Assembly: GCF_022828475.1 (NCBI RefSeq)
Contig: NZ_CP059557.1
Span: 1,116,001 to 1,180,000, forward strand
Reading direction: 5' to 3'
DNA length: 64,000 nt
Origin: Saccharopolyspora gloriosae
GTDB taxonomy: Bacteria; Actinomycetota; Actinomycetes; Mycobacteriales; Pseudonocardiaceae
The position numbers and the translations under genes were made by a program. Positions 42,492-63,540 of this stretch are shown piece by piece. Below the pieces are notes generated by a model. That model had not been told where the DNA came from. It was given only the letters and a program-made list of their open reading frames with translations, and ran no database searches. The number at the start of each line of letters is the position of its first letter. Position 1 is the first letter of the stretch.

Positions 42492-42589
42492 GGGTAGCGG
42501 AACCTCAGTTGCTTCCTCGCTGCGGGATCTTTTCCGGAGTGGCTCCGCCACGAGGCCGTTCTCGCGAGGAAGCAACTGGGAGCCCGCCG
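42492..42589. repeat. family B repeat, copy 1 (reverse, degenerate)
   Basis: The stem arms CAGTTGCTTCCTCGC (42506-42520) and GCGAGGAAGCAACTG (42564-42578) pair fully. The inner part is shortened (CTTTTCCGGAGTGGC) compared with other copies, and the flanking small hairpin is absent. It lies 38 bases after dhaM. The rest of the gap to 42777 shows only a -10-like TAAAGT before the next gene. Confidence 0.88.
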
Positions 42590-42777
42590 GGGTGCCGGTT
42601 GCTGAGGTGGTCGCTGCTCATCGGCTTCGCCGCTGACAGGACACTGATCAAAAGATCATTCCGGAGCTGAGTCCGAAATGGACACTCGTGGATCCGATGG
42701 TTCGTTCACGGGCGTTTCCGTTGTCGGCTCCACTACGCAGATCACGCTGATGCGTTCCGCCGAGTTAAAGTGGGCCG

Positions 42778-43755
42778 ATGCCGCTGCGTCCGTGCTTTCG
42801 AGGCTTGCCGGTGGTGCTGATGTCGTTGCTGCTGCTGGCCGTCGGCTGCAGCGGTGCGGCGCAGCCGCGTCCGGAGCCGACGCCGGACCGCGAGTCGGCG
42901 ACGATGGCCGCGTCCCTCGGTGATCCGCGCACGGTCGATCCCTGTTCGCTGATCGATCCGGCATCGCTGACCGAGTTCGGCGAAGCGCGCAACGCGGGCA
43001 CCGTGTCGTTGGACTACTGCCTGTTCCGGATGCGGATGGCCGATGGTGCGCTGGCGCAGCTGAAGGTCGGTGAACTGGCGCGGGAGGTTCCGGGGCAGGC
43101 CGATCCGGTGGTCGGCGAGGGTCCGTTGCGGATCGCGCAGGAGGCGCCGTTGCCGGGCCACTGCACGCGGCGAGTTCTGTTCGGAGACGGCAATTCCCTG
43201 CTGGTCAGCGCAGATCAGCTCGATGGCAGCCCCGGCGCCGCACTGTGCGGGATGGCCGAGGCGGGAGCGCGCGACGTCGTCGCCGCGATCGGCAGGCAGC
43301 AGGTGGCGCACCGCCCGTATCCGGCGAACTCGCTGGCGTTGAGCGATCCGTGCCGGGTGCTCGGCACCGAGGTCGTGCGGCAGGTGCCCGGTCTGGAGCA
43401 GGCGGAACCGGTGGCGTCCCCGGCGGGCCACCAGTGCCAGTGGGGCGCGGCCGACGCCGCGTCGCCGCGGGTACGGCTGGTGCACACCGCCGGTGCTCCA
43501 CCTGCCGTGCTGCACGGATCGGCGGTGCAGGAGCGGATCGCGGGCCGCCGCACGGTGACCAGCGTCGTCGGCGGCGACCCGAGCACCCCGCTGTGCTCCG
43601 CGGAGACCGGGCACATCCCGTTCGGCGAACCGGGCGGCGGTCAGGTCGAGGTGGCGATGCTCGTTGTGGCCTATCCCGACGGCACCGGCCTGGACGCCTG
43701 CGAGTTCGCCAGAGGACTCGCGGAACGGGCTTGGCAGGAACTCCCGCGGTCCTAG
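42778..43755 (+). CDS. lipoprotein of unknown function with duplicated domain
   Basis: The protein has 325 residues. The signal peptide ends in LLLLAVGC, so the protein is lipid-anchored. Two similar halves each have a DPC motif followed by conserved Cys: RTVDPCSLIDPASLTEFGEA with LDYCLFRM, and LALSDPCRVLGTEVVRQVPG with HQCQWG. This resembles DUF3558-like actinobacterial lipoproteins. ATG at 42778 with TAAAGT (42766-42771) 6 bases upstream, a leaderless start. The broken gene at 36701 encodes a relative. Confidence 0.8.
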   Translation: MPLRPCFRGLPVVLMSLLLLAVGCSGAAQPRPEPTPDRESATMAASLGDPRTVDPCSLIDPASLTEFGEARNAGTVSLDYCLFRMRMADGALAQLKVGELAREVPGQADPVVGEGPLRIAQEAPLPGHCTRRVLFGDGNSLLVSADQLDGSPGAALCGMAEAGARDVVAAIGRQQVAHRPYPANSLALSDPCRVLGTEVVRQVPGLEQAEPVASPAGHQCQWGAADAASPRVRLVHTAGAPPAVLHGSAVQERIAGRRTVTSVVGGDPSTPLCSAETGHIPFGEPGGGQVEVAMLVVAYPDGTGLDACEFARGLAERAWQELPRS

Positions 43756-43807
43756 TTCCGCTACCCGCACCGCTACGGGAACCGGCCAGGGTCGTTACCG
43801 TGGGGGC

Positions 43808-44122
43808 GTGCCGCGTCGTAATCGTTCGCAACGCCCGTCCGGGGACTCGCCGGGGCAGGGCGCTCGGCCGTTGGGTTCCGGTTTCGGCTGGTCCAGGGTC
43901 GAGGAAGGACCGGACGGTGAGTGGATCGTGCGGACCGTTCCGGCCGCGCAGGCCACGAAGACCTACCGCTGCCCGGGCTGCGATCACGAGGTGCGGCCCG
44001 GTGTCGGGCACGTGGTGGCGTGGCCCGCCGACGAGCAGGGCGACGTCGCCGATCGGCGGCATTGGCACAGCGGATGCTGGCGGGCTCGCGGCCGCCGCGG
44101 TCCCACTCGGCGCTGGTCCTGA
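43808..44122 (+). CDS. small zinc-ribbon-like protein
   Basis: The protein has 104 residues. A basic Pro/Arg-rich head and GSGFGWSRVEEGPDGEWIVR are followed by a probable zinc site: CPGCDHEVRPGVGHVVAW and, later, HWHSGCWRARGRRGP. Cys, Cys, His and Cys could bind one metal. The GTG at 43808 has TACCGT 6 bases upstream, leaderless. Actinobacteria commonly carry such proteins without known function. The following hydrolase starts 49 bases later. Confidence 0.8.
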   Translation: MPRRNRSQRPSGDSPGQGARPLGSGFGWSRVEEGPDGEWIVRTVPAAQATKTYRCPGCDHEVRPGVGHVVAWPADEQGDVADRRHWHSGCWRARGRRGPTRRWS

Positions 44123-44171
44123 CGGGCATCTCACACCGGTGTGACCGGGTCGGCGTGGGAGGATCGACCCG

Positions 44172-44921
44172 ATGAGCACCGAAATCCGCGCCAACACCGT
44201 GCTTCCGGCCGAGCGGGAGCAGATCACCCTGCACACCGCCGATGAGCTGCAGTTGATCGGTGAGTTGTCGTTGCCTGCGAACGGTGCTCCGCGGGCCACG
44301 CTGGTGTGCCTGCACCCGCTGCCCACGCACGGCGGGATGATGGATTCGCACCTCTACCGCAAGGCCGCGTTCCGGCTGCCCGCGCTGGCCGATCTCGCGG
44401 TGCTGCGGTTCAACACTCGCGGCACCGTCAGCGAAGCGGGGCGCAGCGAGGGTTCGTTCGACAACGGCGACTCCGAACGGTTCGACGTGGCCGCGGCGCT
44501 GGAGTACGCCGAGTTCCACGACCTGCCGAACGTGTGGCTCGTCGGCTGGTCGTTCGGCACCGACCTCACCCTCGTGCACGGGCTGGACCCGTTGGTGCAA
44601 GGCGCGATCCTGATCTCACCGCCGCTGCGCTGGAGCACCGAGGAGAACCTGCGCGCGTGGGGCGAGTCGGGGAAACCGGTGCACGCCCTGGTGCCGGAGT
44701 TCGACGACTACCTCCGCCCGGAGGAGGCCCGCCGCCGGTTCTCGACGATCCCGCAGGCGCAGGTCACCGGGTTCGACGACACGAAGCACCTGTGGGTCGG
44801 CAAGGCGGAGTCCGCGCTGGACGCCATCGTGGACATCGTCGCCCCCGACGTAGCCACCCCGCTGCCCCGCACCTGGGAAGGCCCGTCCGAGACGCGCCAG
44901 GTCACCATCATCGGCCAGTGA
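44172..44921 (+). CDS. alpha/beta hydrolase (KANL3/dienelactone-like)
   Basis: The protein has 249 residues. The early strand TLVCLHPLPTHGGMMDS is followed by LRFNTRGTVSEAGRSEGSFD, the nucleophile elbow VWLVGWSFGTDLTLV (Ser) and the late His in DDTKHLWVGKAESALD. Members are conserved in actinobacteria, act on unknown esters, and may be located in the cytoplasm since no signal peptide is seen. ATG at 44172. It converges on the methyltransferase gene at 45097. Confidence 0.85.
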   Translation: MSTEIRANTVLPAEREQITLHTADELQLIGELSLPANGAPRATLVCLHPLPTHGGMMDSHLYRKAAFRLPALADLAVLRFNTRGTVSEAGRSEGSFDNGDSERFDVAAALEYAEFHDLPNVWLVGWSFGTDLTLVHGLDPLVQGAILISPPLRWSTEENLRAWGESGKPVHALVPEFDDYLRPEEARRRFSTIPQAQVTGFDDTKHLWVGKAESALDAIVDIVAPDVATPLPRTWEGPSETRQVTIIGQ

Positions 44922-44979
44922 GCGCCTCGGCCTTCCGGCAACGTCCGTGCCCCCGGAGTCGGCTGAGGTGAATGCCTCA

Positions 44980-45000
44980 TTCGCCCGCTCATCGGGCGAA
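44980..45000. terminator. hairpin between convergent genes
   Basis: TTCGCCCG pairs with CGGGCGAA over the loop CTCAT. It lies between the convergent hydrolase and methyltransferase genes. There is no clear T-run. Confidence 0.4.
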
Positions 45001-45096
45001 AAGGGACATCGACCGCACCGGTGGTCGCGGGTGAATGTCTCCTTCTGCGGTGGTATTGGGCCGTTCACCTGGATCGGGGTTTCGCGACCGGGGGCG

Positions 45097-46275
45097 TCAG
45101 GTGCGTTCCGCGCGGCAGAGGTAGGCGTGGGGGGTGCTGCCGACTCGGGTGAGGATGGCGGTGGCCTCGGTGGCGCCGCGTGGTTTGAGCTTGCGGCGCA
45201 GCGCGTCGGGGTCCACGTCGACGCCGCGGGTCATGATCTCCAGGCGTCCCACGTCGTGTTCGCGCAGCAGCGCCCGCAGTGCCTTTTCCGCGTACTTGCC
45301 GTGGTCGATCACCCGGAACGCCCGGATTCCGGGTGGTGGCGCGTCACCGGTGAGGTAGGCGATGCGCGGGTCGAGTTGGCCGAGGCCGTGCCGGGCGGCG
45401 TAGTGGCGCACCAGCCCGGCGCGCACCACCGCTCCGTCGGGGTCGACGATCCACTGGCCGATGTCGAGCACGGGGCAGTCGTCGGGTGCTCGGTCGGTGA
45501 GTTCGTCGCGGGAGCCGTCGGTGCGCAGCACGGTGGCGCGTCGCCGCACCCCGGGCTCGGCGAGTCCGCCGAGCCACACCGCGGCCTCCCGCACCTGCCC
45601 GGCGAGCGAGACGATTTCCACTTCGGCGTGTTCGGGAATGGCGTCGAAGTCGAGGCCGGGCGCGCATTTCACGACCATGTCGCGTCCCGCGTGGACATCG
45701 AGCAGTTCGTCCAGCGGCGGCACCAGGTCGGCCGGGTTCCAGCGGCGGCGGCCGGTGCCGTCGCGGCGGGCGGGGTCGGCGACGATCGTGGTTCCGGTGC
45801 TGACAGGGCGCAGCGCGTCCGCGCGCACGAGCCCGGCGGGGCTGCCGTCGGCGGTGAGGTTGTGCCGGGCCATCGCGAGCCGGACCTCGTCGAGGTCGGA
45901 GCCGAGGCACCGGTCGGCGACCAGCGCGACCTCTCGGAGGTCCGCGCCGATCGAGCAGGTCACGTCGTGCACCACGTGACCGGTGAGCCGCCGCGCCCGG
46001 TGCCTGGCGACGGCGGCGGTCGTGGCCTGCTGCAACGCGTCCTCGGTGAACAGCCACCGCCCTGCACCGTCCAGTTTGGACTCGGCTCGGCCGCGCAGTA
46101 CCGCGGTTTCCAGCGCTGCGGCGGCGAACCGCGGCCCGGCGACGGCCCGAGCCGCGGCGACGTCGGCGAACCGCGATGCGGAAGTCAGCGGCCGTTGCGC
46201 CACCGCCGCGACGGCCTCGGCCCCGGCGGCGGACCGCAGGAAGGCCACATCATCGAGGTCGAAGGCGTACCCCAC
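45097..46275 (-). CDS. class I SAM methyltransferase with THUMP-like C-terminal domain
   Basis: The protein has 392 residues. After an Ala-rich helical head (FLRSAAGAEAVAAVAQRPLT) comes the SAM fold: HDVTCSIGADLREVALVA (loop), GSDLDEVRLAMARHNL (acidic end of the second strand) and TIVADPARRDGTGRRRW (catalytic-loop region). The C-terminal part GVDVDPDALRRKLKPRGATE is the THUMP-like domain. The order matches a conserved actinobacterial family likely acting on RNA. GTG at 46275 is chosen; a GTG at 46305 is possible. Confidence 0.85.
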   Translation of the reverse strand: MGYAFDLDDVAFLRSAAGAEAVAAVAQRPLTSASRFADVAAARAVAGPRFAAAALETAVLRGRAESKLDGAGRWLFTEDALQQATTAAVARHRARRLTGHVVHDVTCSIGADLREVALVADRCLGSDLDEVRLAMARHNLTADGSPAGLVRADALRPVSTGTTIVADPARRDGTGRRRWNPADLVPPLDELLDVHAGRDMVVKCAPGLDFDAIPEHAEVEIVSLAGQVREAAVWLGGLAEPGVRRRATVLRTDGSRDELTDRAPDDCPVLDIGQWIVDPDGAVVRAGLVRHYAARHGLGQLDPRIAYLTGDAPPPGIRAFRVIDHGKYAEKALRALLREHDVGRLEIMTRGVDVDPDALRRKLKPRGATEATAILTRVGSTPHAYLCRAERT

Positions 46276-46494
46276 CCGAATTCCACCACCGCACAAGAGC
46301 TCCACCAGGACCGCAGCACTCTAGCCCTCGACACCCCGAACCCTGGAACAAGGTCCGACCCCCAGCGCCCGGTGGACGCACCCAATTCGGCCACGTACGC
46401 CAGCAACGCCAACGCCTCAAAAACCGAAAACCCATTTCTTTGCGGCGAAGCCGTGCCTTTGGCGGCGAAGTCCGCGAAGGGCGGGCGAAGCCAC

Positions 46495-46672
46495 GCCTGC
46501 CTTGCGGCCGAAGGCCGTGCCTGTATGTGCGAAGCACATAGCCCACGTCAAGAAGCCGACCACCGGCGGGTTCTCAGTGAGCCTCTCGCGAGGACAGCTT
46601 TTTCCCTCGTGGCGGAGCCACTTGGGAAAAAGATCCCGCAGCGAGAGGCTCACTGAGGTTCCGCTACCCGAC
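46495..46672. repeat. family B repeat, copy 2 (forward)
   Basis: The small hairpin TATGTGC-GAA-GCACATA (46524-46540) precedes the main hairpin. Main stem arms are CAGTGAGCCTCTCGC (46575-46589) and GCGAGAGGCTCACTG (46641-46655). The inner stem is CTTTTTCCC with GGGAAAAAG. It fills the gap before the methyltransferase start and after the enoyl-CoA hydratase stop (both minus strand). The remaining bases 46276-46494 are GC-rich fragments of the same repeat. Confidence 0.93.
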
Positions 46673-46707
46673 CACCAAACCAAAAAGACCGGGTCAGCAC
46701 CTCGACT

Positions 46708-47490
46708 TCACTTACCGGTGAACTCGGCTTTGCCCGGGCCGTTTTCGATGAACGAGCGCATCCCGATCTTCTGGTCCTCGGTGGCGAAGAGCCCGGCGAA
46801 GATCTGCGTTTCCAGGCGGAGTCCGTTGTCGAGGTCCATGTCGAGCCCACCGTCGATCGCGGCCTTCGCCGCCGCCAGCGCACGCGCCGGGCCGTTGGCG
46901 AACTGTTCGGCCCACTTGCGGGCCGCCGCGTACACCTCGTCGGGGGCCACGACTTCGTCGACGAGGCCCATGTCCAGTGCTTCGGGGGCTTTGACGAACC
47001 GGCCGGAGAAGATGATGTCCTTCGCCTTGCTCGGTCCGACGAGCCTGGCGAGCCGCTGGGTGCCGCCGGCACCGGGGATCACGCCGAGCAGGATTTCCGG
47101 CTGACCGACCTTCGTGTTCTCGCCGACGATGCGGCGGTCGCAGCTCAGGGCCAATTCGAATCCGCCGCCGAGCGCGTAGCCGGTGATCGCGGCGACCGTC
47201 GGTTTCGGGATGGCGGCGACGGCGCTCATCGCGGCGGTGAGGCCGTTCTCCTCCTTGGCGGCCATGTCGGAGTACGACATGTCGGCCATTTCTTTGATGT
47301 CGGCGCCGGCCGCGAGCACCTTCTCGCCGCCGTAGACGATCACCGCGCGCACGTCGGGGCGTTCGGCCGCCTCCGCCGCCACGGTTTTCAGTTCCTGCTC
47401 GATCTGCCGGTTCAGCGCGTTCATCGGCGGCCGCTCCAGCCTGATCGTGCCGATGGCGCCTTCCACGTCGAGCCTGACGAACTCACCCAC
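46708..47490 (-). CDS. enoyl-CoA hydratase/isomerase family protein
   Basis: The protein has 260 residues and the crotonase fold. GTIRLERPPMNALNRQIEQE begins the core. The oxyanion hole is formed by VIVYGGEKVLAAGADIKEMA and ITGYALGGGFELALSCDRRI. The two hydratase Glu positions are in PEILLGVIPGAGGTQRLARL. The end is KIGMRSFIENGPGKAEFTG. Beta-oxidation is the likely pathway. GTG at 47490 with GAGGAGG upstream. Residues suggest a true hydratase. Confidence 0.92.
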   Translation of the reverse strand: MGEFVRLDVEGAIGTIRLERPPMNALNRQIEQELKTVAAEAAERPDVRAVIVYGGEKVLAAGADIKEMADMSYSDMAAKEENGLTAAMSAVAAIPKPTVAAITGYALGGGFELALSCDRRIVGENTKVGQPEILLGVIPGAGGTQRLARLVGPSKAKDIIFSGRFVKAPEALDMGLVDEVVAPDEVYAAARKWAEQFANGPARALAAAKAAIDGGLDMDLDNGLRLETQIFAGLFATEDQKIGMRSFIENGPGKAEFTGK

Positions 47491-47606
47491 GCCGCAACCT
47501 CCTCGTCGAACTGCCGCTTGCCGGGAGGCTATCCCGCGTTCCCGCCGACCGTCAGTGTCGACGATCTCAGTAGTGGTGTCACATGTCCTCTTGCGCGGCT
47601 GTGTAA

Positions 47607-47638
47607 CCGGCCCTCGCTCAGCTGGGAACGAGGGCCGG
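47607..47638 (-). terminator. terminator after the ABC ATPase gene
   Basis: CCGGCCCTCG (47607-47616) pairs perfectly with CGAGGGCCGG (47629-47638). On the minus strand it follows the stop at 47657 by 18 bases and is followed by TTACACAG, a weak T-run. Confidence 0.6.
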
Positions 47639-47656
47639 TCGGACGTGCGGGGTCGG

Positions 47657-48445
47657 TCAGGCCCGCCTGCGGGCGAAGTAGCGGTCGCCGCTGCGCTGGA
47701 GTTCGAGGTCCTGGTCGAAGGTCTTCGACAGGTTGTCCTCGGTGAGCACGTCCGCCAGCAGGCCTTGCGCGACGGTGGCGCCCTCGCGCAGCAGCAGGGC
47801 GTGGGTGAATCCCGGCGGGATCTCCTCCACGTGGTGGGTGACGAGCACGGAGGCGGGTGCCTCCGGGTCGAGGGCCAGCGCGGACAGCCGCGCCACCAGG
47901 TCCTCGCGGCCGCCCAGGTCCAGGCCTGCCGCGGGCTCGTCGAGCAGCAGCAGCTCCGGGTCGGTCATCAGTGCGCGGGAGATCAGGGTGCGCTTGCGTT
48001 CGCCTTCGGACAGCGTCCCGAAGGCCCGGTCGGCGAGGTGCGCCATCCCGAGCAGGCCGAGCAGTTCGGTGGCCCGGTCGGTGTCCATCTCGTCGTACTC
48101 TTCGCGCCACCGGCCGAGGACCGAGTAGCCGGCGCTGACGACGACGTCGCGGACCAGCTCGTCGCCGGGCACGCGGGCGCCTAGTGCCGCCGAGGACAGG
48201 CCGATTCGCGGGCGCAGCTCGAACACGTTGGTGCGGCCCATGCGTTCGCCGAGCACGTCGACGGTGCCGTCCGACGGGTGCAGTTCGGCGCCCGCGAGCT
48301 TGAGCAGCGTCGTCTTGCCCGCGCCGTTCGGCCCCAGCACCACCCAGCGCTCGTCGAGTTCCACCGACCAGTTCACGTCGGACACCAGCGCGTTTCCACC
48401 CCGCCGGACTCCGACTCCGTCCATCCGGATGACCAGGTCGTCCAC
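47657..48445 (-). CDS. ABC transporter ATP-binding protein, stand-alone
   Basis: The protein has 262 residues. Walker A is VVLGPNGAGKTTLLKLAGAE, the signature is GTLSEGERKRTLISRALM, Walker B is ELLLLDEPAAGLDLGG and the switch His is in SVLVTHHVEEIPPGF. The last features, and the lack of any permease nearby, resemble the ModF-like or YlmA-type ATPases conserved in actinobacteria. GTG at 48445 with GGGAGG 7 bases upstream. The transported substrate, if any, is unknown. Confidence 0.9.
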   Translation of the reverse strand: MDDLVIRMDGVGVRRGGNALVSDVNWSVELDERWVVLGPNGAGKTTLLKLAGAELHPSDGTVDVLGERMGRTNVFELRPRIGLSSAALGARVPGDELVRDVVVSAGYSVLGRWREEYDEMDTDRATELLGLLGMAHLADRAFGTLSEGERKRTLISRALMTDPELLLLDEPAAGLDLGGREDLVARLSALALDPEAPASVLVTHHVEEIPPGFTHALLLREGATVAQGLLADVLTEDNLSKTFDQDLELQRSGDRYFARRRA

Positions 48446-48779
48446 GTCCACCTCCCAGCCGTTTCCGGCCGCTCTGCGCACGGTTCCGGCGCCGTTCGGA
48501 CCGCCTGGCGATCACCGGCCGGTCCCCTCCAGCACACATTCTTCCGGTCCCGCACCACGTGCTTGCGCCCGGGCTCGACCGAGCGCGCACGAACCTCCGC
48601 GAACCCCGCCGGTTCACCCGCACGAACGAGGACGCCGCCCAACGGACGACGCCCTCGCCACTGGTGTTGAACAGAGCCTGTGAAACCTGCCCGAGTGGCC
48701 GCAGCCCCCTCAACGCCGAAGCCCGTGCCTAGTGGCGAAGCCGTGCAGTCGGCGGCGAAGCCCGCGAAGGGCGGGCGAA
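48446..48779 (-). other. intergenic region upstream of the ABC ATPase gene
   Basis: About 330 bases between the ATPase start and family B copy 3. It reads through as several ORFs of Arg/Pro-rich composition but none has a plausible start or motif. I see nothing else in it. Confidence 0.4.
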
Positions 48780-48962
48780 GCCCCGCTTGCCTCGCGGCCG
48801 AAGGCCGTGCCTGTATGCGCGTCAGCGCATAGCCCACGTCGAAAAGCCGCTCACCGGCGGGTTCTCAGTTGGTCTCTCGCGAGGACAGCTTTTTCCCTCG
48901 TGGCGGAGCCACTTGGGAAAAAGATCCCGCAGCGAGAGACCAACTGAGGTTCCGCTACCCGA
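48780..48962. repeat. family B repeat, copy 3 (forward)
   Basis: The small hairpin is TATGCGC-GTCA-GCGCATA (48814-48831). Main stem arms are CAGTTGGTCTCTCGC (48866-48880) and GCGAGAGACCAACTG (48932-48946). It lies 31 bases beyond the stop of the rhodanese gene (minus strand). Confidence 0.94.
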
Positions 48963-48993
48963 CTCGCTAAGCAGACCGTTACTCAAAAGGGCC

Positions 48994-49440
48994 TCAACCG
49001 ACGGCAGCGTGGCCGCCTTCGATGACGGGGAGCCCCGCCGCACGCCAGGCGCGGAATCCGCCGATCAGGTCCGTGGCCCGGCCGAGGCCGAGTTCGCGGG
49101 CCTGCGCGGCGGCGAGGCTCGACGCGTAGCCCTCGTTGCAGACCAGGATCACGGGCTGGTCGACTCGCAGGCCGTCGAGCCGGTGCGGACTGGACGGGTC
49201 CAGCCGCCATTCGAGGACGATGCGTTCCACGGTCAGCGCGCCGGGGATCTCGCCTTCGGTGAGTCGGTTGGACTGCGGGCGGATGTCGATCAGCAGAGCC
49301 CCGTTGCGCTGGAGCTCCGCGGCCGTGCGCGGATCGACGCGGTCCAGTTCGCCGCGCGCGTCGGACAGCAGGTGGTCGATGCCGTACGGGCCGAAACCGG
49401 GGGCCTCGTCGGAGTGGGGGCGTTGGGTCGGCACGGTCAT
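48994..49440 (-). CDS. rhodanese-like sulfurtransferase
   Basis: The protein has 148 residues. It is a single rhodanese domain with DRVDPRTAAELQRNGALLID, IRPQSNRLTEGEIPGALTVE, the active-site Cys in VILVCNEGYASSLAAAQARE and the closing LIGGFRAWRAAGLPV. Its ATG overlaps the cysteine dioxygenase stop (TGATG), so the two are translated together. A role in handling sulfur released from cysteine breakdown is likely. Confidence 0.9.
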   Translation of the reverse strand: MTVPTQRPHSDEAPGFGPYGIDHLLSDARGELDRVDPRTAAELQRNGALLIDIRPQSNRLTEGEIPGALTVERIVLEWRLDPSSPHRLDGLRVDQPVILVCNEGYASSLAAAQARELGLGRATDLIGGFRAWRAAGLPVIEGGHAAVG

Positions 49441-50027: not shown

Positions 50028-50186
50028 GAAGTGGCTTCCGTTCCTTGGTTCGTGAACTGAATCGGAACCGGGCCGATCGACGGCGTCCCGGCGCTGAACC
50101 GCGCGGCGTGCCGCAGGGCAGGCGGGGAGGTGCGGAATCGCGAAATGCCATGCCGTCGACCCGGTCAGGGTCACGGGGAATTGCGT

Positions 50187-50258
50187 TCAGTGACAGGCCG
50201 AAGTGACGACCAGGAACAGGTCGATCACGCGATCACGAGTCAGCAACGAATCCGGCAC
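50187..50258 (-). CDS. probable Cys-type leader peptide
   Basis: A 23-residue ORF has a GTG at 50258, with CAGGAT 7 bases upstream (leaderless start). Its sequence is MPDSLLTRDRVIDLFLVVTS followed by ACH and a stop. This follows the pattern of actinobacterial 'putative leader peptides' (R-x-V-D-L-x-x-V-x-S-x-x-C near the end) found before sulfur-assimilation and cysteine genes. It lies 160 bases before the dioxygenase start. Stalling at the terminal Cys codon could control downstream expression (inference). Confidence 0.6.
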   Translation of the reverse strand: MPDSLLTRDRVIDLFLVVTSACH

Positions 50259-52186: not shown

Positions 52187-54736
52187 GTGAGAGCCGTCCA
52201 CCGATTCACCGTTCGAGCACATCTGCCGGAGCCGTTGGCGGCGTTGGGAACGCTGGCGACGAACCTGCGCTGGACGTGGCACCCACCGACGCAGGACCTG
52301 TTCGCGGCGGTGGACCCGAAGGTGTGGTCGCGGGTGGGCGGCGACCCGTTGCGGCTGCTGGAAGAGGTGCCGGCGGAGCGGCTGCGCGGGCTCGCCCAGG
52401 ACGACGAGTTCCTGGCCCGCACGCGCGCCGTCGACGACGACCTGCGGCACTACCTGTCGGTGCCCCGCTGGTATCAACAGCGACAGGCGGAGGGCACGGC
52501 GCTGCCGTCCTCGGTGGCGTACTTCTCGATGGAGTTCGGGGTCAGCGAGGCGCTGCCGAACTACTCGGGAGGGCTGGGCGTGCTGGCCGGGGATCACCTG
52601 AAGTCGGCATCGGACCTGGGCGTGCCGCTGATCGGGGTGGGCCTGTTCTACCGCTCCGGCTACTTCCGGCAGGCGTTGTCCGAACAGGGCTGGCAGCAGG
52701 AGCACTACCCGGTGCAGGACCCGAAGGGGCTGCCGCTGGAGACGCTGACCGAACCCTCGGGCGAGCCGATCCTGGTGCGGGTGGCGATGCCCGGGGATCG
52801 CGTGCTGCGCGCGCGGATCTGGAAGGCGCAGGTGGGCCGAGTTCCGCTGCTGCTGCTGGACACGGACCTGCCGGACAACGACGACGACTTGCGCGGCACC
52901 ACCGATCGGCTCTACGGCGGCGATTCGGACCACCGGATCCGGCAGGAGATCCTCGCGGGCGTGGGCGGCGTGCGGGCGGTGCGCGCCTACTGCGAACTCA
53001 CCGGCCACCCGGCGCCGGAGGTGTTCCACACCAACGAGGGGCATGCCGGTTTCCTCGGCCTGGAACGGGTCAGGGAACTGCACGGGGCGCCCGGCTTGAA
53101 CTTCGACGAGGCGGTCGCCGCGGTGCGCGCGGGAACGGTGTTCACCACGCACACGCCCGTTCCGGCGGGCATCGACCGGTTCCCGGTGGACTTGGTGCGG
53201 CACTACTTCGGCGACGGTTCCTCGCAGGCGCTGCTGCCCGGGGTGCCGACGGAGCGGGTGCTGGCGTTGGGCGCCGAGAGCAACGCGGGCATGTTCAACA
53301 TGGCGCACATGGGGTTGCGGCTGGCGCAGCGGGCGAACGGGGTGTCCGCGCTGCACGGCGGCGTGCTGCGCACCATGTTCCGCGGGCTGTGGCCCGGATT
53401 CGGGGTGGAGGAGGTGCCGATCGGTTCGGTCACCAACGGGGTGCACGGACCGACGTGGTCGGCGCGGGAACTCGGCAAGCTGCTCGGCGAGTCCGAAATG
53501 GACAGTGGTGCCGGGTTGCGCGGCATGGAACCGGTGAGCGACCCGTTGCTCTGGGAGCTGCGCAGTTCGCTGCGGCAACGGCTGGTCGACGAAGTGCGCC
53601 GCAGGCTCCGGCAGGCGTGGTTGCAACGCGGTGCCTCCGACCTGGAACTCGGTTGGTGCGATTCGGTTTTCGACCCGGACGTGCTCACCATCGGTTTCGC
53701 CCGCAGGGTGCCGACGTACAAGCGCCTCACGTTGATGCTGCGCGACACCGAACGGCTGCGGCGGCTGTTGCTGGACCCGGAACGGCCGGTGCAGCTGGTG
53801 GTGGCGGGCAAATCGCACCCGGCCGATGAGGGCGGCAAGGCGATGATCCAGCAGATCGCGCGGTTCGCCGATGACCCGGAAGTCCGCCACCGCATCGTCT
53901 TCCTGCCGGATTACGACATGTCCTTGGCGCGGTACCTCGTATCGGGCTGCGACGTGTGGCTGAACACTCCGGTTCGCCCGTTGGAGGCCTGCGGCACCTC
54001 GGGGATGAAGGCCGCGCTCAACGGCGCGCTGAACCTGTCGGTGCGCGACGGCTGGTGGGACGAGCTGTTCGACGGCGAGAACGGCTGGGCGATCCCGAAC
54101 GCCGACGGCGTCACCGACCAGAACCGCCGCGACGACCTGGAGGCCGCCGCGCTCTACGAGCTCATCTCCACCAGCGTCGCGCCCACGTTCTACGAGCGCA
54201 GCACCGACGGAGTGCCCGGCAAGTGGATGTCGATGGTGCGCCACACGCTGGCCACGCTGGGGCCGCGAGTGCAGTCCTCCCGCATGGTCCGCGAATACGT
54301 GGACCGCTACTACGGTCCGGCGGCGCGGTCCGTGAACGCCATGTCGGAGCACGACTTCCAGGGCGCGAAGGAGATCGCCGAGTACGGGGCGCGGCTCAGC
54401 GCGGCCTGGTCGTGGGTGCGGGTCGGCTCCACCCGGATGTCCGTGGACGACGGCGCGACGCCGCTGCTGGGCGGGCGGATCACGGTCAGCGCGGAAGTGG
54501 ACCTGGCGGGCCTCGAACCGTCCGATGTGGACGTGGAGGTGGTGGTGGGCCGTGTCGACGATGCCGACAAGCTGCATGAGTTCACGACCGAATCCATGCG
54601 TCCCGGCGAAGACGGCCACTACGAGGCGACGGTGACCCTGCCGCACGCCGGGCCGACCGGGTACACCGTCCGGGTGTTGCCGAAGCACCCCCTCCTATCC
54701 GGGCCGGCCGAACTAGGCAGAGTCGTTCTGGCTTGA
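52187..54736 (+). CDS. glgP: alpha-glucan (glycogen) phosphorylase
   Basis: The protein has 849 residues, the length of the actinobacterial GlgP type. It removes glucose-1-phosphate from glycogen or related glucans with pyridoxal phosphate. Clear features are SSVAYFSMEFGVSEALPNYS, GGLGVLAGDHLKSASDLGVP, EVFHTNEGHAGFLGLERV, TVFTTHTPVPAGIDRFP, RRVPTYKRLTLML and the PLP-Lys region LEACGTSGMKAALNGALNLS. The GTG at 52187 has TAGGGT 8 bases upstream. Mycobacterial neighbours glgB and glgE are not in this window. Confidence 0.95.
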   Translation: MRAVHRFTVRAHLPEPLAALGTLATNLRWTWHPPTQDLFAAVDPKVWSRVGGDPLRLLEEVPAERLRGLAQDDEFLARTRAVDDDLRHYLSVPRWYQQRQAEGTALPSSVAYFSMEFGVSEALPNYSGGLGVLAGDHLKSASDLGVPLIGVGLFYRSGYFRQALSEQGWQQEHYPVQDPKGLPLETLTEPSGEPILVRVAMPGDRVLRARIWKAQVGRVPLLLLDTDLPDNDDDLRGTTDRLYGGDSDHRIRQEILAGVGGVRAVRAYCELTGHPAPEVFHTNEGHAGFLGLERVRELHGAPGLNFDEAVAAVRAGTVFTTHTPVPAGIDRFPVDLVRHYFGDGSSQALLPGVPTERVLALGAESNAGMFNMAHMGLRLAQRANGVSALHGGVLRTMFRGLWPGFGVEEVPIGSVTNGVHGPTWSARELGKLLGESEMDSGAGLRGMEPVSDPLLWELRSSLRQRLVDEVRRRLRQAWLQRGASDLELGWCDSVFDPDVLTIGFARRVPTYKRLTLMLRDTERLRRLLLDPERPVQLVVAGKSHPADEGGKAMIQQIARFADDPEVRHRIVFLPDYDMSLARYLVSGCDVWLNTPVRPLEACGTSGMKAALNGALNLSVRDGWWDELFDGENGWAIPNADGVTDQNRRDDLEAAALYELISTSVAPTFYERSTDGVPGKWMSMVRHTLATLGPRVQSSRMVREYVDRYYGPAARSVNAMSEHDFQGAKEIAEYGARLSAAWSWVRVGSTRMSVDDGATPLLGGRITVSAEVDLAGLEPSDVDVEVVVGRVDDADKLHEFTTESMRPGEDGHYEATVTLPHAGPTGYTVRVLPKHPLLSGPAELGRVVLA

Positions 54737-54757
54737 GCGGGTCTTTTTGCTTGGGGG

Positions 54758-54965
54758 GTCGGGTGGCGGAACCTCAGTGAGCCTCTCGCTGCGGGATCTT
54801 TTTCCCAAGTGGCTCCGCCACGAGGGAAAAAGCTGTCCTCGCGAGAGACCAACTGAGAACCCGCGGGTGGTCGGCTTCTTGACGTGGGCTATGTGCTTCG
54901 CACATACAGGCACGGCCTTCGGCCGCGAGGCAGGCGTGGCTTCGCCCGCCCTTCGCGGGCTTGGC
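54758..54965. repeat. family B repeat, copy 4 (reverse, mismatched arms)
   Basis: The left arm is CAGTGAGCCTCTCGC (54775-54789) and the right arm is GCGAGAGACCAACTG (54841-54855). The arms belong to different subtypes and pair with three mismatches. The inner stem CTTTTTCCC-GGGAAAAAG and the small hairpin TATGTGC-TTC-GCACATA (54890-54906) are intact. It lies between convergent genes. The remainder to 55137 holds no gene. Confidence 0.92.
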
Positions 54966-56295: not shown

Positions 56296-56566
56296 GATCA
56301 GGGAACTTACGTGAAAGCCCGTCGCCGCCACGGCACTTTGCGCTCTCGTCGAGAGCGCGATCACGGACGGGCCGGTCGCCGAACGCCCGCGGGATTCGCT
56401 GCGCGGCTTGAAAAAACCTGGTCAACGAGGCTGTGCGGCCCCCGCCCCGACGCGCGGAAAGCGAAGTGGCCCACCCGATAGGCTGACCCGCAGCGGTCGG
56501 CGGAGCGAGCTCGGGGGACCGGATCCGCCGCCCGGCCATCGGACTTCAGAACAGGACGGGAACTCT

Positions 56567-58033: not shown

Positions 58034-58069
58034 CTTCACGGCAACGCGGATCGCCCCGGAAGGGGCCGG

Positions 58070-58837
58070 TCAGCCGAACAAGAACGGCGTGTCGACGGAG
58101 CGGTCCGGCAGGGCCGGGCGGGTACGGCTCAGCATCCGATCGCGCAGCGCCTCGACGTCCGCGTCGGCCAGGCCCGCCGCACGCAGGTGCGCGGTGAGGT
58201 CGCGGTCGCCGATGATCGAGTGGACGATGCTCGCGGTGCTGGTGCCGTGCGCGCTGAGCAGGCGGCGGATCTCCGGCGCGTCGTCGGCCCGGCCCTCGGC
58301 GGCGGCCAGGACCCGCAGCGGCTCGTGGCTCAGAGCGTGGTCGGCCGCGATGACCTCGGCGCTCGCGCCCAGCAGGCCGAGCAGCACGAGCACGATCAGC
58401 CCGGTGCGGTCGCGGCCGCTGCCGCAGTGCACCAGCACCCCGCCCGGTTCGGCCCGCGCGATCGCCCCGACGACCTCGGCGATCCGCGGTGCGAAGCGGT
58501 CCACGAACGACGGGTAGTACAGCGGCGTGCACGACAGCGCACCGCCCCAGCGTTCCTGGAACTCGGTGTCGGAATGGTCGTCCAACGGGAAGCGCAGCGT
58601 GGTGAGCCCGGCGGGCCGCAGCGCCCGATCCGCCCCGTCCTCAGCTCCGTCGGTGAGGTCCACGACGGTGCGCACTCCGTGTTCCCACAACGCCGCCCAC
58701 CCGTCGACGCTCAAGAACACCGGATTCCCGGAGCGGACCACGGCTCCCCAGCGCACGTGCCCGCCACCCACCGGCAGCCCCCCGAGCTCCCGGCCGTTGA
58801 GCAACCCGTCCCAAGTCAGTACCCGAGATCCACCCAT
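58070..58837 (-). CDS. tyrosine/serine phosphatase (PTP superfamily)
   Basis: The protein has 255 residues. The phosphate loop is VLVHCGSGRDRTGLI (Cys138, Arg144), preceded by TVVDLTDGAEDGADRAL and the N-terminal NGRELGGLP. This is the pattern of MPtpB-like phosphatases (DUF of tyrosine phosphatase family 3). ATG at 58837, with a GTG at 58852 as an alternative. No secretion signal is seen, so the enzyme is expected in the cytoplasm unless exported by another route. Confidence 0.88.
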   Translation of the reverse strand: MGGSRVLTWDGLLNGRELGGLPVGGGHVRWGAVVRSGNPVFLSVDGWAALWEHGVRTVVDLTDGAEDGADRALRPAGLTTLRFPLDDHSDTEFQERWGGALSCTPLYYPSFVDRFAPRIAEVVGAIARAEPGGVLVHCGSGRDRTGLIVLVLLGLLGASAEVIAADHALSHEPLRVLAAAEGRADDAPEIRRLLSAHGTSTASIVHSIIGDRDLTAHLRAAGLADADVEALRDRMLSRTRPALPDRSVDTPFLFG

Positions 58838-59002
58838 CCCCGGAAGACGCACGAGCCCGCCCGCAGTTGTACACCGGACGGCGGAATCAACCCCCCCACA
58901 ACGTCCCGCCCCGCGGCGAGGCCGGTGCTTCGCGGCGCAACCGTGCAGTTGGCGGACGCAGCCCGCGAAGGACGGCAAAGCAGCCCACCTCACGGCCGAA
59001 GG

Positions 59003-59108
59003 CCCTGCTTTGCGGCGTAGCCGTGTTCTGCGGCCGGAGGCCGTGCTTGGCGGCGTAGCCGTGTTCTGCGGCCGGAGGCCGTGCTTGGCGGCGTAGCCGT
59101 GCTTGTAT
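59003..59108. repeat. 38-bp tandem repeat
   Basis: Units begin at 59003, 59041 and 59079 with a period of exactly 38 (start CCGTGCTTGGCGGCGTAGCC, the first unit with two changes). The third is partial and leads into the small hairpin of family B copy 5. Units are GC-rich and resemble the flank of the other B copies. Confidence 0.88.
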
Positions 59109-59254
59109 GCGCGTCAGCGCATAGCCCACGTCGAGAAGCCGCTCACCGGCGGGTTCTCAGTTGCTTCCTCGCGAGGACAGCTTTTTCCCTCGTGGCGGAG
59201 CCACTTGGGAAAAAGATCCCGCAGCGAGGAAGCAACTGAGGTTCCGCTACCCGA
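59104..59254. repeat. family B repeat, copy 5 (forward)
   Basis: The small hairpin is TATGCGC-GTCA-GCGCATA (59105-59122). Main stem arms are CAGTTGCTTCCTCGC (59158-59172) and GCGAGGAAGCAACTG (59224-59238). It ends about 100 bases before hrpA and lies between the divergent phosphatase and helicase genes. Confidence 0.94.
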
Positions 59255-59351
59255 CACCAGAGCAAAACGACCGGGGGAGAGAGGACTCCGACAGGAGTCA
59301 CACCTGACCGGCGTAAAACCGGTGGCGCGGTTCTCTATCCTGGAACGAAGT

Positions 59352-62300
59352 ATGGGTACGTCACCTGTGAGCTCCCCGCTGGCCGACCTGCGCGGCCGCC
59401 TGCCCGAGCTGATGTTCAACGACCAGCGCAGGCTCCGCCGCCGCATCGAGGGCGCCCGCAAGATCCGGGACGCCGCGAAGCTGGAGTCCGCCACCGGCGA
59501 GATCGCCGCCGAGGTGGCGGCCGCCGAGCAGCGCGTCGAGCGGCGTCGCGGCGCGGTCCCGGCCATCGGCTACCCCGAGCAGCTCCCCGTCAGCGCGCGC
59601 CGCGAGGACCTGCTGGCGGCGATCCGGGACAACCAGGTGGTGATCGTCGCGGGTGAGACCGGCTCCGGCAAGACCACCCAGATCCCGAAGATGTGCCTGG
59701 AGCTGGGTCGTGGTGTGCAGGGCGTCATCGGGCACACCCAGCCGCGCAGGCTCGCGGCCCGCACCGTCGCCGAACGGGTCGCCGAGGAGCTCGGCACCGA
59801 ACTCGGGGAGGCCGTCGGCTACCAGGTGCGGTTCACCGAGCGGGCCGGTGAGTCGACGCTGGTGAAGTTGATGACCGACGGGATCCTGCTCGCCGAGATC
59901 CAGCGGGACCGGCTGCTGCGCCGCTACGACACGCTGATCATCGACGAGGCGCACGAGCGCAGCTTGAACATCGACTTCATCCTCGGCTACCTCAAGCAGC
60001 TGCTGCCGCGCCGACCCGACCTCAAAGTGATCATCACGTCGGCGACGATCGACCCGGACCGGTTCTCCCGGCACTTCGGCGACGCCCCCATCGTGGAGGT
60101 CTCCGGCCGCACCTTTCCGGTCGAGGTGCGCTACCGGCCGTTGGTGGAGGAATCGCCGGACCCGGATCTGCCCGTCAACGAGCGGGATCAGACGCAGGCC
60201 ATCTGCGACGCCGTCGACGAGCTCGGCGCGGAGGGCACCGGCGACGTCCTGGTGTTCCTCAGCGGTGAACGGGAGATCCGGGACACCGCGGACGCGTTGA
60301 ACCAGCAGAAGCTGCGCAACACCGAGGTGCTGCCGTTGTACGCGCGCCTGTCGGCCGCCGAGCAGCACCGCGCGTTCCAGCCGCACACCGGCAGGCGCAT
60401 CGTGCTGGCCACCAACGTCGCCGAGACCTCGCTGACGGTGCCCGGCATCAAGTACGTCATCGACCCCGGCACCGCGCGCATCTCCCGCTACAGCTTCCGC
60501 ACGAAGGTGCAGCGGCTGCCGATCGAACCCGTTTCGCAGGCGTCGGCGAACCAGCGCAAGGGCCGCTGCGGGCGAGTGTCCGAAGGCATCTGCATCCGCC
60601 TGTACTCGGAGCAGGACTTCGATTCCCGCCCCAAATTCACCGATCCGGAGATCCTGCGCACCAACCTCGCCTCGGTGATCCTGCAGATGACCTCGCTGGG
60701 ACTGGGCGATGTGGCGTCGTTCCCGTTCCTGGAACCACCGGATCGCCGCCAGATCACCGACGGCGTCAACCTGCTGCACGAGCTCGGCGCGCTGGACGAG
60801 ACCGGCGAGGACGACGGCCGCAAGCTCACCTCGATCGGCCGCACCCTGGCGCAACTGCCCATCGATCCGCGGCTGGCGCGGATGGTGATCGCCGCCGAAC
60901 GCAACGGCTGCCTGCATGAAACCCTCGTCATCGCCTCCGGACTGTCCATTCAGGACCCGCGGGAGCGGCCCGCGGAACACCAGCAGGCGGCGGGGGAGAA
61001 GCACGCCCGGTTCAGCGACAAGGAATCGGACTTCCTGGCGTTGGTGAACCTGTGGAACCACCTGCGCGAGCAGCAGCGCGAACTGTCCTCGAACCAGTTC
61101 CGCAAGCAGTGCAAGGCGGACTTCCTGAACTACCTGCGGGTGCGCGAGTGGCAGGACCTCTACTCGCAGCTGCGGCAGATGGCGAAGTCGCTCGACATGT
61201 CGCTCAACGACGAGCCCGCCGATTCCGAGCGGGTGCACCGGTCGCTGCTGGCCGGGCTGCTCTCGCACATCGGGCTCAAGGACACCGACAAGAAGACGGA
61301 GAAGGCGGGTCCGCGGCAGCGCGGCGCCACCGAATACCTCGGTGCCCGCAACGCGAAGTTCGCGATCTTCCCCGGCTCCGCGTTGTTCAAGAAGCCGCCG
61401 CGGTTCGTGATGTCCGCCGAACTGGTGGAGACCTCCCGGTTGTGGGGCCGGGTCAACGCCCGCATCGAACCCGAATGGGTCGAGGACCTCGCCCAGCACC
61501 TGGTGAAGCGCAGCTACAGCGAACCGCACTGGGAGAAGAACCGCGCCGCCGTGATGGCGAGCGAGAAGGTCACCCTGTTCGGCGTGCCGCTGGTCGCCGG
61601 GCGCAAGGTCAACTACGGCCGCGTCGAACCGGAACTGTGCCGGGAACTGTTCATCAGGCACGCCCTCGTCGAAGGCGACTGGGACACGAACCACCGGTTC
61701 TTCCACGACAACCGCGCGCTGCTCGCCGAAGTGGAGGACCTGGAGGAACGCGCTCGCCGCAGGGACATCCTCGTGGACGACGAAACGCTGTTCGAGTTCT
61801 ACGACCAGCGGGTCGGTGCCGAAGTCGTCTCCGGCAGGCACTTCGACACCTGGTGGAAGAAGACCCGCCGCGAGCAGCCGGACCTGCTCAACTTCGAGAA
61901 GTCCATGCTCATCAACCAGGAGTCGGCGCGGGTCACCGACCACGACTACCCGGACACCTGGCAGCAGGGCGGGCACCGGCTGGAGTTGACCTACCAGTTC
62001 GAGCCGGGCTCCGACGCCGACGGCGTCACCGTGCACCTCCCGCTGGCGGTGCTCAACCAGATCGAACCCGCCGGGTTCGACTGGCAGATCCCCGGGCTGC
62101 GCGAAGAACTCGTCATCGCGTTGCTGAAGTCGCTGCCGAAGACGTTGCGGCGCAACTTCGTTCCGGTGCCCGACCACGCCCGCGCCGCGCTGTCCCGGAT
62201 GCCGGTGATGCGCGGCGACCTCGTCGGTGCGCTGAGCGAGCAGCTGCGCGCCATGACCGGGGTGACCGTGCCACCGGACGCGTTCGACGTGGACGCGTTG

Positions 62301-63305
62301 CCGGAACACCTGAAGATGTCGTTCCGCGTGATCGACGGGGACGGCAAGAAGCTCGCCGAGTCCAAGGATCTCGACGCGCTCAAGCAGCGGCTGCGCCCGA
62401 AGCTGCGCGCCGAGATCTCCGCGGCCGCCGACACCGTCGAACGCACCGGGCTGAGCTCGTGGAGCTTCGGTGAGCTGCCGCGCACCTTCGAGAAGGAACG
62501 TGGCGGCAACTCGGTCAAGGCCTACCCGTCCCTTGTGGACGAGGGCGACTCGGTCGCGGTCCGCATGTTCGACACCGAAGCCGAACAGCGCCGCGCGTTG
62601 TGGCACGGCACCCGGCGGCTGTTGCTGCTGAACCTGCCGTCACCGGTGAAGTCCTTGCAACGAGGCATGAACGCGCGCACCCGCGTCGTACTCGGCACCG
62701 GCCCGCACGGCGACATCACGCGCCTGCTCGAGGACTGCGTGACCTGCGCCGTGGACAAGCTCGTCGCAGACGCGGGCGGACCGGTGTGGAGCCAGGACGG
62801 ATTCGCCGCGCTGAAGGCGAAGGTGCGGGCCGGTCTCGGCCCCGTCACCGCCGATACCGCCGCCAAGGTGGAGAAGGTGCTCAACGCGGCGCAGCAAGCC
62901 CGATCGGCACTGGCGGACCGGGAACGCACCATGCCCGCGGACTCGCTGGCCGACGTCAAGGAACAGCTCGAAGGGCTGCTCCACCCCGGATTCGTCGCCG
63001 GAACCGGATGGGACCGGCTGCCGGACCTGGAGCGGTACCTGCGCGCCATCGAGCACCGGCTGGACAAGGTGCAGCACCATCCGCAGCGCGACCGGCAGTG
63101 GATGGCGCAGATCGACGAGGTGCGGGACCGCTACCTGGATCTGCTCGACGCCGTCCCCGACGGTCGCGCGCCCGGTGCGGAACTGCGCAAGGTCGGCTGG
63201 ATGATCGAGGAGTTCCGCGTTTCGCTGTTCGCGCAGGCGTTGGGGACCCCGCACGCCGTCTCCGCCAAGCGCATTCACCGGGCTTTGGATAAGGCTGCTC
63301 GGTGA
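59352..63305 (+). CDS. hrpA: ATP-dependent RNA helicase HrpA
   Basis: The protein has 1317 residues, the full length of bacterial HrpA, a DEAH-box helicase that rescues stalled ribosomes and remodels RNA. Motif I is GETGSGKTTQIPK (residues 101 onward), motif Ia TQPRRLAARTVAERVAEELG, motif II DEAH at 198-201 and motif III SAT. Motif VI is QRKGRCGRVSEGICIRLYS. A helicase-associated domain and the long DUF3418 C-terminal region follow. The ATG at 59352 is chosen because upstream codons belong to the repeat. TATCCT lies 10 bases upstream. Confidence 0.94.
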   Translation: MGTSPVSSPLADLRGRLPELMFNDQRRLRRRIEGARKIRDAAKLESATGEIAAEVAAAEQRVERRRGAVPAIGYPEQLPVSARREDLLAAIRDNQVVIVAGETGSGKTTQIPKMCLELGRGVQGVIGHTQPRRLAARTVAERVAEELGTELGEAVGYQVRFTERAGESTLVKLMTDGILLAEIQRDRLLRRYDTLIIDEAHERSLNIDFILGYLKQLLPRRPDLKVIITSATIDPDRFSRHFGDAPIVEVSGRTFPVEVRYRPLVEESPDPDLPVNERDQTQAICDAVDELGAEGTGDVLVFLSGEREIRDTADALNQQKLRNTEVLPLYARLSAAEQHRAFQPHTGRRIVLATNVAETSLTVPGIKYVIDPGTARISRYSFRTKVQRLPIEPVSQASANQRKGRCGRVSEGICIRLYSEQDFDSRPKFTDPEILRTNLASVILQMTSLGLGDVASFPFLEPPDRRQITDGVNLLHELGALDETGEDDGRKLTSIGRTLAQLPIDPRLARMVIAAERNGCLHETLVIASGLSIQDPRERPAEHQQAAGEKHARFSDKESDFLALVNLWNHLREQQRELSSNQFRKQCKADFLNYLRVREWQDLYSQLRQMAKSLDMSLNDEPADSERVHRSLLAGLLSHIGLKDTDKKTEKAGPRQRGATEYLGARNAKFAIFPGSALFKKPPRFVMSAELVETSRLWGRVNARIEPEWVEDLAQHLVKRSYSEPHWEKNRAAVMASEKVTLFGVPLVAGRKVNYGRVEPELCRELFIRHALVEGDWDTNHRFFHDNRALLAEVEDLEERARRRDILVDDETLFEFYDQRVGAEVVSGRHFDTWWKKTRREQPDLLNFEKSMLINQESARVTDHDYPDTWQQGGHRLELTYQFEPGSDADGVTVHLPLAVLNQIEPAGFDWQIPGLREELVIALLKSLPKTLRRNFVPVPDHARAALSRMPVMRGDLVGALSEQLRAMTGVTVPPDAFDVDALPEHLKMSFRVIDGDGKKLAESKDLDALKQRLRPKLRAEISAAADTVERTGLSSWSFGELPRTFEKERGGNSVKAYPSLVDEGDSVAVRMFDTEAEQRRALWHGTRRLLLLNLPSPVKSLQRGMNARTRVVLGTGPHGDITRLLEDCVTCAVDKLVADAGGPVWSQDGFAALKAKVRAGLGPVTADTAAKVEKVLNAAQQARSALADRERTMPADSLADVKEQLEGLLHPGFVAGTGWDRLPDLERYLRAIEHRLDKVQHHPQRDRQWMAQIDEVRDRYLDLLDAVPDGRAPGAELRKVGWMIEEFRVSLFAQALGTPHAVSAKRIHRALDKAAR

Positions 63306-63318
63306 AGGCTGCTTGGGG

Positions 63319-63540
63319 GGTCGGGTGGCGGAACCTCAGTTGGTCTCTCGCTGCGGGATCTTTTTCCCTAGTGGCTCCGCCACGAGGGAAAAAGCTGTCC
63401 TCGCGAGAGACCAACTGAGAACCCGCCGGTGGTCGGCTTTTCGACGTGGGCTATGCGCTTCGCGCATACAGGCACGGCTTCGCCGCAAGGCAGGCTTGCT
63501 TCGCGGCCCAACTGCACGGCTTCGCCGCAAGGCAGGCCGT
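63319..63540. repeat. family B repeat, copy 6 (reverse)
   Basis: Stem arms are CAGTTGGTCTCTCGC (63337-63351) and GCGAGAGACCAACTG (63403-63417). The inner stem is CTTTTTCCC-like with one change (TTTTTCCCTAGTGGC). The small hairpin is TATGCGC-TTC-GCGCATA (63452-63468). It lies between convergent hrpA and DegV genes. Confidence 0.93.

What the first reader, a model, noticed from the sequence alone, without database searches (positions are those of the whole stretch)
42492..63540. Family B: six long hairpins whose stems change in a paired way
All copies share a frame (GGCGGGTTCTCAG ... CTGAGGTTCCGCTACCCGAC), an inner stem CTTTTTCCC/GGGAAAAAG and a stem CAGTNNNNNNCTCGC. The variable part of the stem exists in three versions: TGAGCCTCTCGC, TTGGTCTCTCGC and TTGCTTCCTCGC. 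In five of six copies the opposite arm carries the matching version. The small flanking hairpin also varies in pairs (TATGTGC/GCACATA against TATGCGC/GCGCATA). Paired change is the mark of selection for structure, in RNA or as a DNA cruciform, or of arm-to-arm gene conversion. I know no described family with this structure.
Basis: partly seen in the sequence, partly recalled or inferred. Interest (0 to 1): 0.8.

Follow-up and report, generated by a model that had tools for sequence, protein, structure and literature searches.

The report
Spreading hairpin repeat behind gene ends
A roughly 100-letter hairpin, found once in some and over a hundred times in other bacteria related to Saccharopolyspora, sits at a nearly fixed distance behind the ends of genes and keeps its shape, though not its letters, through evolution; it matters because the strand that must fold appears to be the one opposite to the gene, which ordinary repeat families do not explain.

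Summary
Six copies lie where stated; five are full-length and five have matching arms. The window is from a Saccharopolyspora chromosome with at least 135 copies. A covariance model hits 53 of 200 family genomes (13 of 46 genera) and 19 of 298 order genomes, all in this family. Covariation is strong (16 doubly changed pairs, 0 of 500 shuffles). It also holds at one orthologous site, behind gatB in five genomes, so copying between repeats does not explain it all. New facts: (1) the hairpin starts a median 38 nt behind a stop codon; the gene there runs in the sense direction in 252 of 308 copies. (2) Imperfect pairs are more often G.T than A.C on the strand opposite to that gene (114:44 over 176 arm pairs; 75:12 outside the high-copy genomes; not significant within them, 39:32). 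(3) Sites are gained and lost between species. (4) No Y1 transposase in the window's genome. (5) No U-tract on the folded strand. Best reading: a mobile boundary element acting in antisense or convergent transcripts. Mechanism unproven; single-stranded-DNA mobility is a serious rival.

The parts
42498..42586 (-). hairpin copy C1, degenerate (inner CTTTTTCCC stem lost); behind dhaM-HPr gene 41774-42454(+)
46567..46663 (+). hairpin copy C2, stem version TGAGCCT; behind enoyl-CoA hydratase gene 46708-47490(-)
48858..48954 (+). hairpin copy C3, stem version TTGGTCT; behind rhodanese gene 48994-49440(-); absent at the same site in three relatives (G003, G004, G005)
54767..54863 (-). hairpin copy C4, mismatched arms (TTGGTCT with partner of TGAGCCT): recombinant of two subfamilies; behind alpha-glucan phosphorylase gene 52235-54736(+)
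59150..59246 (+). hairpin copy C5, stem version TTGCTTC; the exception: in a divergent gap before hrpA
63329..63425 (-). hairpin copy C6, stem version TTGGTCT; behind hrpA gene 59367-63305(+)
46524..46540 (+). mini-hairpin TATGTGC-GAA-GCACATA beside C2
48814..48831 (+). mini-hairpin TATGCGC..GCGCATA beside C3
54890..54906 (-). mini-hairpin TATGTGC-GAA-GCACATA beside C4
59106..59123 (+). mini-hairpin TATGCGC..GCGCATA beside C5
63452..63468 (-). mini-hairpin TATGCGC-GAA-GCGCATA beside C6

Best explanation
It is a family of dispersed, still-spreading intergenic repeats of Pseudonocardiaceae. The core is a ~100-nt hairpin with nearly invariant internal-loop letters and freely changing but paired stems. 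SHOWN by sequence: selection for folding; a position a median 38 nt behind a stop codon; gain and loss of copies between species. SHOWN outside the high-copy genomes, not significant within them: the folded strand is the one complementary to the upstream gene. INFERRED: the folding molecule is RNA made by polymerase travelling against the upstream gene (from a convergent gene or a stray promoter). The hairpin, with its A/C-rich flank, would stop, pause or cut that transcript just before it enters the coding region, so the element works as an insulator of gene 3' ends. Hosts would keep copies behind useful genes while the element itself spreads by an unknown route.
For: Covariation and the orthologous gatB set. 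Reader-strand G.T against A.C: 125:44 over 203 genome-labelled arm pairs; counting identical arm pairs once, 114:44 over 176, and 75:12 over the 75 outside G000/G003/G004/G005. In loci gathered without any strand-specific model it is 61:35, and 22:3 outside the high-copy genomes (17 arm pairs, mostly one clade). A model of the opposite strand found no larger set of copies in 12 genomes and hit all 40 loci given. Reader-strand RNA folds better in 154 of 203 copies (my sum). 45 of 45 elements in 880 kb are intergenic. Tandem gaps 119 same:41 opposite. In G000 27 of 65 copies are in convergent gaps against 10.8 expected, and 6 in divergent gaps against 16 (expectation from gaps over 100 bp in 460 kb). 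In S. erythraea antisense transcription is reported as enriched at gene 3' ends (PMC3610266, passages read).
Against: No transcript was seen. No U-tract follows the hairpin in the antisense direction (0 of 200), so it is not a canonical terminator. The distance is fixed to the gene whose transcript would not carry the folded strand, and is variable to the other gene; a sense 3'-UTR role would explain that more simply. Between two tandem genes the source of an antisense transcript is unknown.
Confidence: 0.38

Rival explanations
1. A mobile hairpin moving as single-stranded DNA (REP-, MITE- or HUH-like), with no host function. The strand complementary to the upstream gene folds as ssDNA, and the structure is kept because movement needs it; the position behind stop codons reflects target choice or tolerance.
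For: Gains and losses at syntenic sites; near-identical young copies. Strand follows the direction of replication in G017 (24 of 25 listed copies; genes 57%) and G018 (59 of 70 listed; genes 66%), weakly in G004 (22 of 30; genes 58%, p 0.06) (terminus assumed opposite dnaA). G.T is also stabler than A.C in DNA hairpins (recalled).
Against: No Y1 transposase (PF01797) in 4 of 6 genus genomes, the window's included; other transposase families were not searched. No general terminal inverted repeat and no clear target duplication. No replication bias in G000 (33 of 68). Old single copies keep folding at orthologous sites, which mobility alone does not need.
Confidence: 0.3
2. A sense-strand 3'-UTR element: terminator or stability hairpin of the upstream gene's mRNA.
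For: Median 38-nt distance and sense orientation behind the stop in 252 of 308 copies; sites behind gatB, metK, recA, murC, map, rpsQ and benB (names checked); very stable hairpin.
Against: Imperfect pairs are mostly A.C on the sense strand outside the high-copy genomes; there the sense strand folds 4-17 kcal/mol worse on average in all 18 groups; T4 within 15 nt downstream in only 11 of 200.
Confidence: 0.18
3. Paired changes arise without selection, by template switching or arm-to-arm conversion in a quasi-palindrome, plus copying of whole subfamilies.
For: Subfamilies share exact stems; a recombinant copy exists (C4), and a copy with fully symmetric arms (L083); stems are replaced wholesale at shared sites.
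Against: Conversion predicts no G.T over A.C bias, and would also symmetrise the internal loops, which stay asymmetric in nearly all copies.
Confidence: 0.1

Closest known systems
REP/BIME (RAYT-associated) elements
   Same: short intergenic palindromes in many copies, mostly near gene 3' ends; many copies have GTRG at the foot of the stem on the sense strand
   Different: hairpin about 100 nt with asymmetric, nearly invariant loops; no Y1 transposase in G000, G003, G004, G005; GTRG not universal; folded strand apparently opposite to the GTRG strand
ERIC/IRU and other MITE-like small repeats (features recalled; PMC2229807 and PMC2759123 seen in the listing only)
   Same: 100-250 bp, intergenic, palindromic, gained and lost between species
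   Different: no clear terminal inverted repeat or target duplication found; near-fixed spacing to stop codons; strand-biased wobble
Intrinsic transcription terminators
   Same: stable hairpin tens of nt behind stop codons
Structured RNAs of Rfam
   Same: covarying stems with nearly invariant internal loops
   Different: no family at gathering threshold in the window; at E<=1 only implausible miRNA-hairpin matches, plus a weak CRISPR-repeat match in the flank

Membership tests
REP/RAYT | Y1 (RAYT) transposase gene in the genome | tested here: not met
   PF01797: 0 in G000, G003, G004, G005; 1 in G001, 2 in G002; 5 of 14 controls ring
REP/RAYT | GTRG tetranucleotide at the 5' foot of the stem | tested here: inconclusive
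   GTAG/GTGG on the sense strand in many copies, GCTCA and others in the rest; not counted
MITE | terminal inverted repeats | tested here: inconclusive
   G001/G002: own-pair scores >=20 in 30% of 20 copies vs 7% of cross pairs; no signal in the main tail type, 126 copies
MITE | target-site duplication at empty sites | tested here: inconclusive
   flanks too diverged between species
MITE / mobile repeat | presence/absence at orthologous sites | tested here: met
   Of 21 G000 copies 3 had no syntenic gap in G003; of 18, 6 share a copy in the same orientation, 2 gaps hold one in the opposite orientation, 10 have no full copy (at least one of these gaps holds a degenerate copy)
Intrinsic terminator | U-tract behind the hairpin | tested here: not met
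   T4 within 15 nt: 0 of 200 reader strand, 11 of 200 sense
Rfam structured RNA | match above a curated cut-off | tested here: not met
   0 matches in the 64-kb window
Structured RNA (any) | is transcribed | not testable with these tools
   no RNA-seq data; supplementary tables could not be opened (limit 0)
Integron attC | R boxes and an integrase | not tested
   considered only; copies are dispersed, not in an array

The most novel reading that the evidence does not exclude
A new class of self-spreading element that settles a set distance behind stop codons and carries a structured RNA on the antisense strand, shielding the 3' ends of genes from antisense or head-on transcription. A bolder variant: the antisense-strand hairpin exists as single-stranded DNA and is pasted into the new lagging strand, which would fit both the folded strand and the replication-following orientation in G017 (probably S. 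erythraea) and in G018.
Probability: 0.3. Interest if true: 0.78.

Novelty: new variant of a known kind. Interest (0 to 1): 0.62.

Why it matters
Over a hundred near-identical hairpins at gene ends could shape RNA ends and antisense transcription across a family of antibiotic producers, S. erythraea probably among them. Asking on which strand imperfect pairs are G.T tells which strand of a palindromic repeat is under selection, a question usually left open for REP/ERIC-like repeats, and it makes RNA and ssDNA models directly testable.

Tried and rejected
RAYT as mobiliser: absent from G000, G003, G004 and G005. A general basal stem or TIR between leader and tail: no excess over cross-pairs in the main tail type; weak in G001/G002. 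Phage or plasmid origin: one 221-base query, no match in either collection. Known RNA: none. My first idea that copies are always in sense orientation was too strong: 56 of 308 are not. My first script for empty sites failed for lack of gene anchors and was replaced. The S. erythraea sRNA paper PMC3827479 (outline and passages) lists 647 predicted sRNAs, but the tables are in supplements I could not open, so no coordinate match was tried. The mean fold energies printed for G005 are an artefact and are not used; its 31 of 47 count is in my sum. 'Matches' can count both strands of one place, so 44 (G017) and 116 (G018) are upper limits; I used the 25 and 70 distinct listed places. The groups hold one genome twice (Halo and g36 share a sequence); one search counts identical arm pairs once. 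One search left out loci labelled provisionally; one search includes them.
Full report
WHAT IS THERE. The window is G000:C1:1116001-1180000 of a 6.88 Mb single-contig genome. The six hairpins are real. Genome-wide, 135 copies fit the pattern with at most 3 mismatches in 40 fixed letters; the reversed pattern gives 0. All six genus genomes have matches.

STRUCTURE. Reader strand: CGG-GTT-CTCAG-N7-CTCGC-GAGGACAGC-inner stem-loop-GATCCCGCA-GCGAG-N7'-CTGAG-GTT-CCG. In 258 collected copies N7 pairs perfectly in 185; 33 of 92 distinct N7/N7' combinations are perfect (25 of the 258 carry a provisional label and some may repeat G005/G001 copies). On 77 distinct sequences 94.8% of cells pair, 16 pairs have changes on both sides, and 244 cells are doubly changed against 63.9 in shuffles and 22-64 in slid controls. 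Inner stems differ between species but mostly pair; the loop letters GAGGAC[A/G]GC and GATCCCGCA hardly change. No Rfam family matches at its threshold (at E<=1).

IS IT JUST CONVERSION? In the young copies whole subfamilies are copied: at all six sites shared by G000 and G003 in the same orientation the N7 stem differs, and 10 of the 12 stems pair perfectly. Copy C4 and the symmetric copy L083 show recombination. But in few-copy genomes the element sits behind the same gene in five of seven genomes of one genus; it is gatB (two of the five proteins scanned). Its outer 20 pairs show 7 with double changes, 97% of cells paired, 4 of 500 shuffles reaching 7 pairs and 0 of 500 reaching the number of cells. 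The sites behind map (G018, G185) and behind a 100-aa membrane protein (G018, G017) are shared between genera, with stems changed yet paired and loops constant.

WHICH STRAND FOLDS. A G.U pair on one strand is A.C on the other. With identical arm pairs counted once it is 114:44 over 176 (p 2e-8), and 75:12 over the 75 outside the high-copy genomes G000, G003, G004, G005. As distinct events by genus, position and context it is 77:34. Against it: within the high-copy genomes, where the window lies, it is 39:32 (p 0.48), and the p-values ignore kinship. Ascertainment: most copies from other genera were found with a reader-strand model. In loci gathered without it the ratio is 61:35, and 22:3 outside the high-copy genomes (17 arm pairs, mostly the G001/G002 clade). 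I also built the opposite-strand model: in 12 genomes it gave equal or lower counts at E<=1e-6, and it hit all 40 loci given. Reader-strand RNA folds better in 154 of 203 copies, and in 81 of the 87 outside the four high-copy genomes (my sums); in G004 in only 10 of 23. In the 18 other groups the mean gap is 4-17 kcal/mol.

WHERE IT SITS. By my own codon-usage gene caller, 45 of 45 elements (40 with both halves or a 5' half, 5 with a 3' half only) in 880 kb are intergenic, where 18-19% of bases are intergenic. Over 311 copies after removal of 2 duplicates, the gene at the foot of the hairpin runs in the sense direction in 252 of 308 with a known neighbour; in 225 of those 252 the hairpin starts within 60 nt of the stop, median 38 nt; tandem gaps are 119 same:41 opposite. 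In the window five of six copies obey; C5 does not. The family-wide reader-strand frame is often a small hairpin, then ..CGCAACCGGCACCGCCG, the long hairpin, CYACCCGCACCGCYACGCAA, and the stop codon of the opposed gene (the high-copy type differs). Neighbours in the window are dhaM-HPr, enoyl-CoA hydratase, rhodanese, glucan phosphorylase and hrpA.

SPREAD. The covariance model hits 53 of 200 sampled family genomes (13 of 46 genera) and 19 of 298 order genomes, all in this family; both used strict filters and scored at most 20 and 13 candidates a genome, so weak copies may be missed. Copy numbers run from one (for example G071, G098, G118) to at least 135 (G000). Of 18 G000 copies with a syntenic gap in G003, 10 gaps lack a full copy; C3 is absent from three relatives, and in G000 it lies between the stop codon and an older terminator-like hairpin. 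In G017 and G018 the strand follows the replichore beyond gene bias (24/25, 59/70; p 2e-5 and 5e-4), in G004 weakly (22/30, p 0.06), in G000 not (33/68); these are the listed, best-scoring copies, with the terminus assumed opposite dnaA. G017 has 8,212,805 bases, which I recall as the S. erythraea NRRL 2338 chromosome. Old copies behind housekeeping, usually co-directional genes may explain part of this bias.

HOW IT MAY WORK. The facts to reconcile are: folding apparently selected on the strand opposite to the gene; a near-fixed distance to that gene's stop; intergenic only; spreading; no U-tract. An antisense-facing boundary element fits the folded strand and the enrichment in convergent gaps, but not obviously the fixed distance. 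A sense 3'-UTR hairpin fits the distance but not the strand. An ssDNA mobile element fits spreading and replication polarity, but no enzyme was found. I put 0.38, 0.18 and 0.30 on these and 0.10 on unselected conversion.

LITERATURE. The listings of six library searches show no description (open-licence papers only). PMC3610266 (outline and passages) reports antisense transcription enriched at gene 3' ends in S. erythraea and mentions no such repeat in the passages seen.

Noticed in passing
gaps at A407644, B216161, B224773, B311144, B391130 (G000 1.0-1.46 Mb, G003 5.04-5.46 Mb): Another hairpin repeat (GGTGAATGTCCC...GGGACATTCACC-like, with variants) often occupies the syntenic gap where this element is missing; in A407644 it lies behind a copy of this element.
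   Followed up: no
window 58993-59106, 46440-46531, 63457-63527: Arrays of GCGAAGC-type mini-hairpins (GGCGAAGCC, GGCCGAAGGCC; a 38-bp tandem unit at 58993) form the tail of the main subfamily; the GAA mini-loop is reminiscent of the very stable DNA mini-hairpin d(GCGAAGC) (recalled).
   Followed up: partly
L107 end, L055, L125, L127, L129, L162, L164, L177, L179, L181: Contigs of Saccharopolyspora sp. NFXS83 often begin or end inside this repeat, so short-read assemblies undercount it.
   Followed up: no
L058, L042, L053 (G001) and L048, L057 (G002): Some older copies have an inverted repeat of up to ~30 bp (imperfect) between leader and tail end, possibly a basal stem or a TIR.
   Followed up: partly
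L064, L065, L066: Y1 transposase genes in G001 (1) and G002 (2) only; their neighbours were not examined.
   Followed up: no
reader-strand flanks of the hairpin in most genera: Two short words (CGCAA and GGCACCGC-like) flank the hairpin as direct repeats in mirrored order on the two sides, as if bound by the same partner.
   Followed up: no
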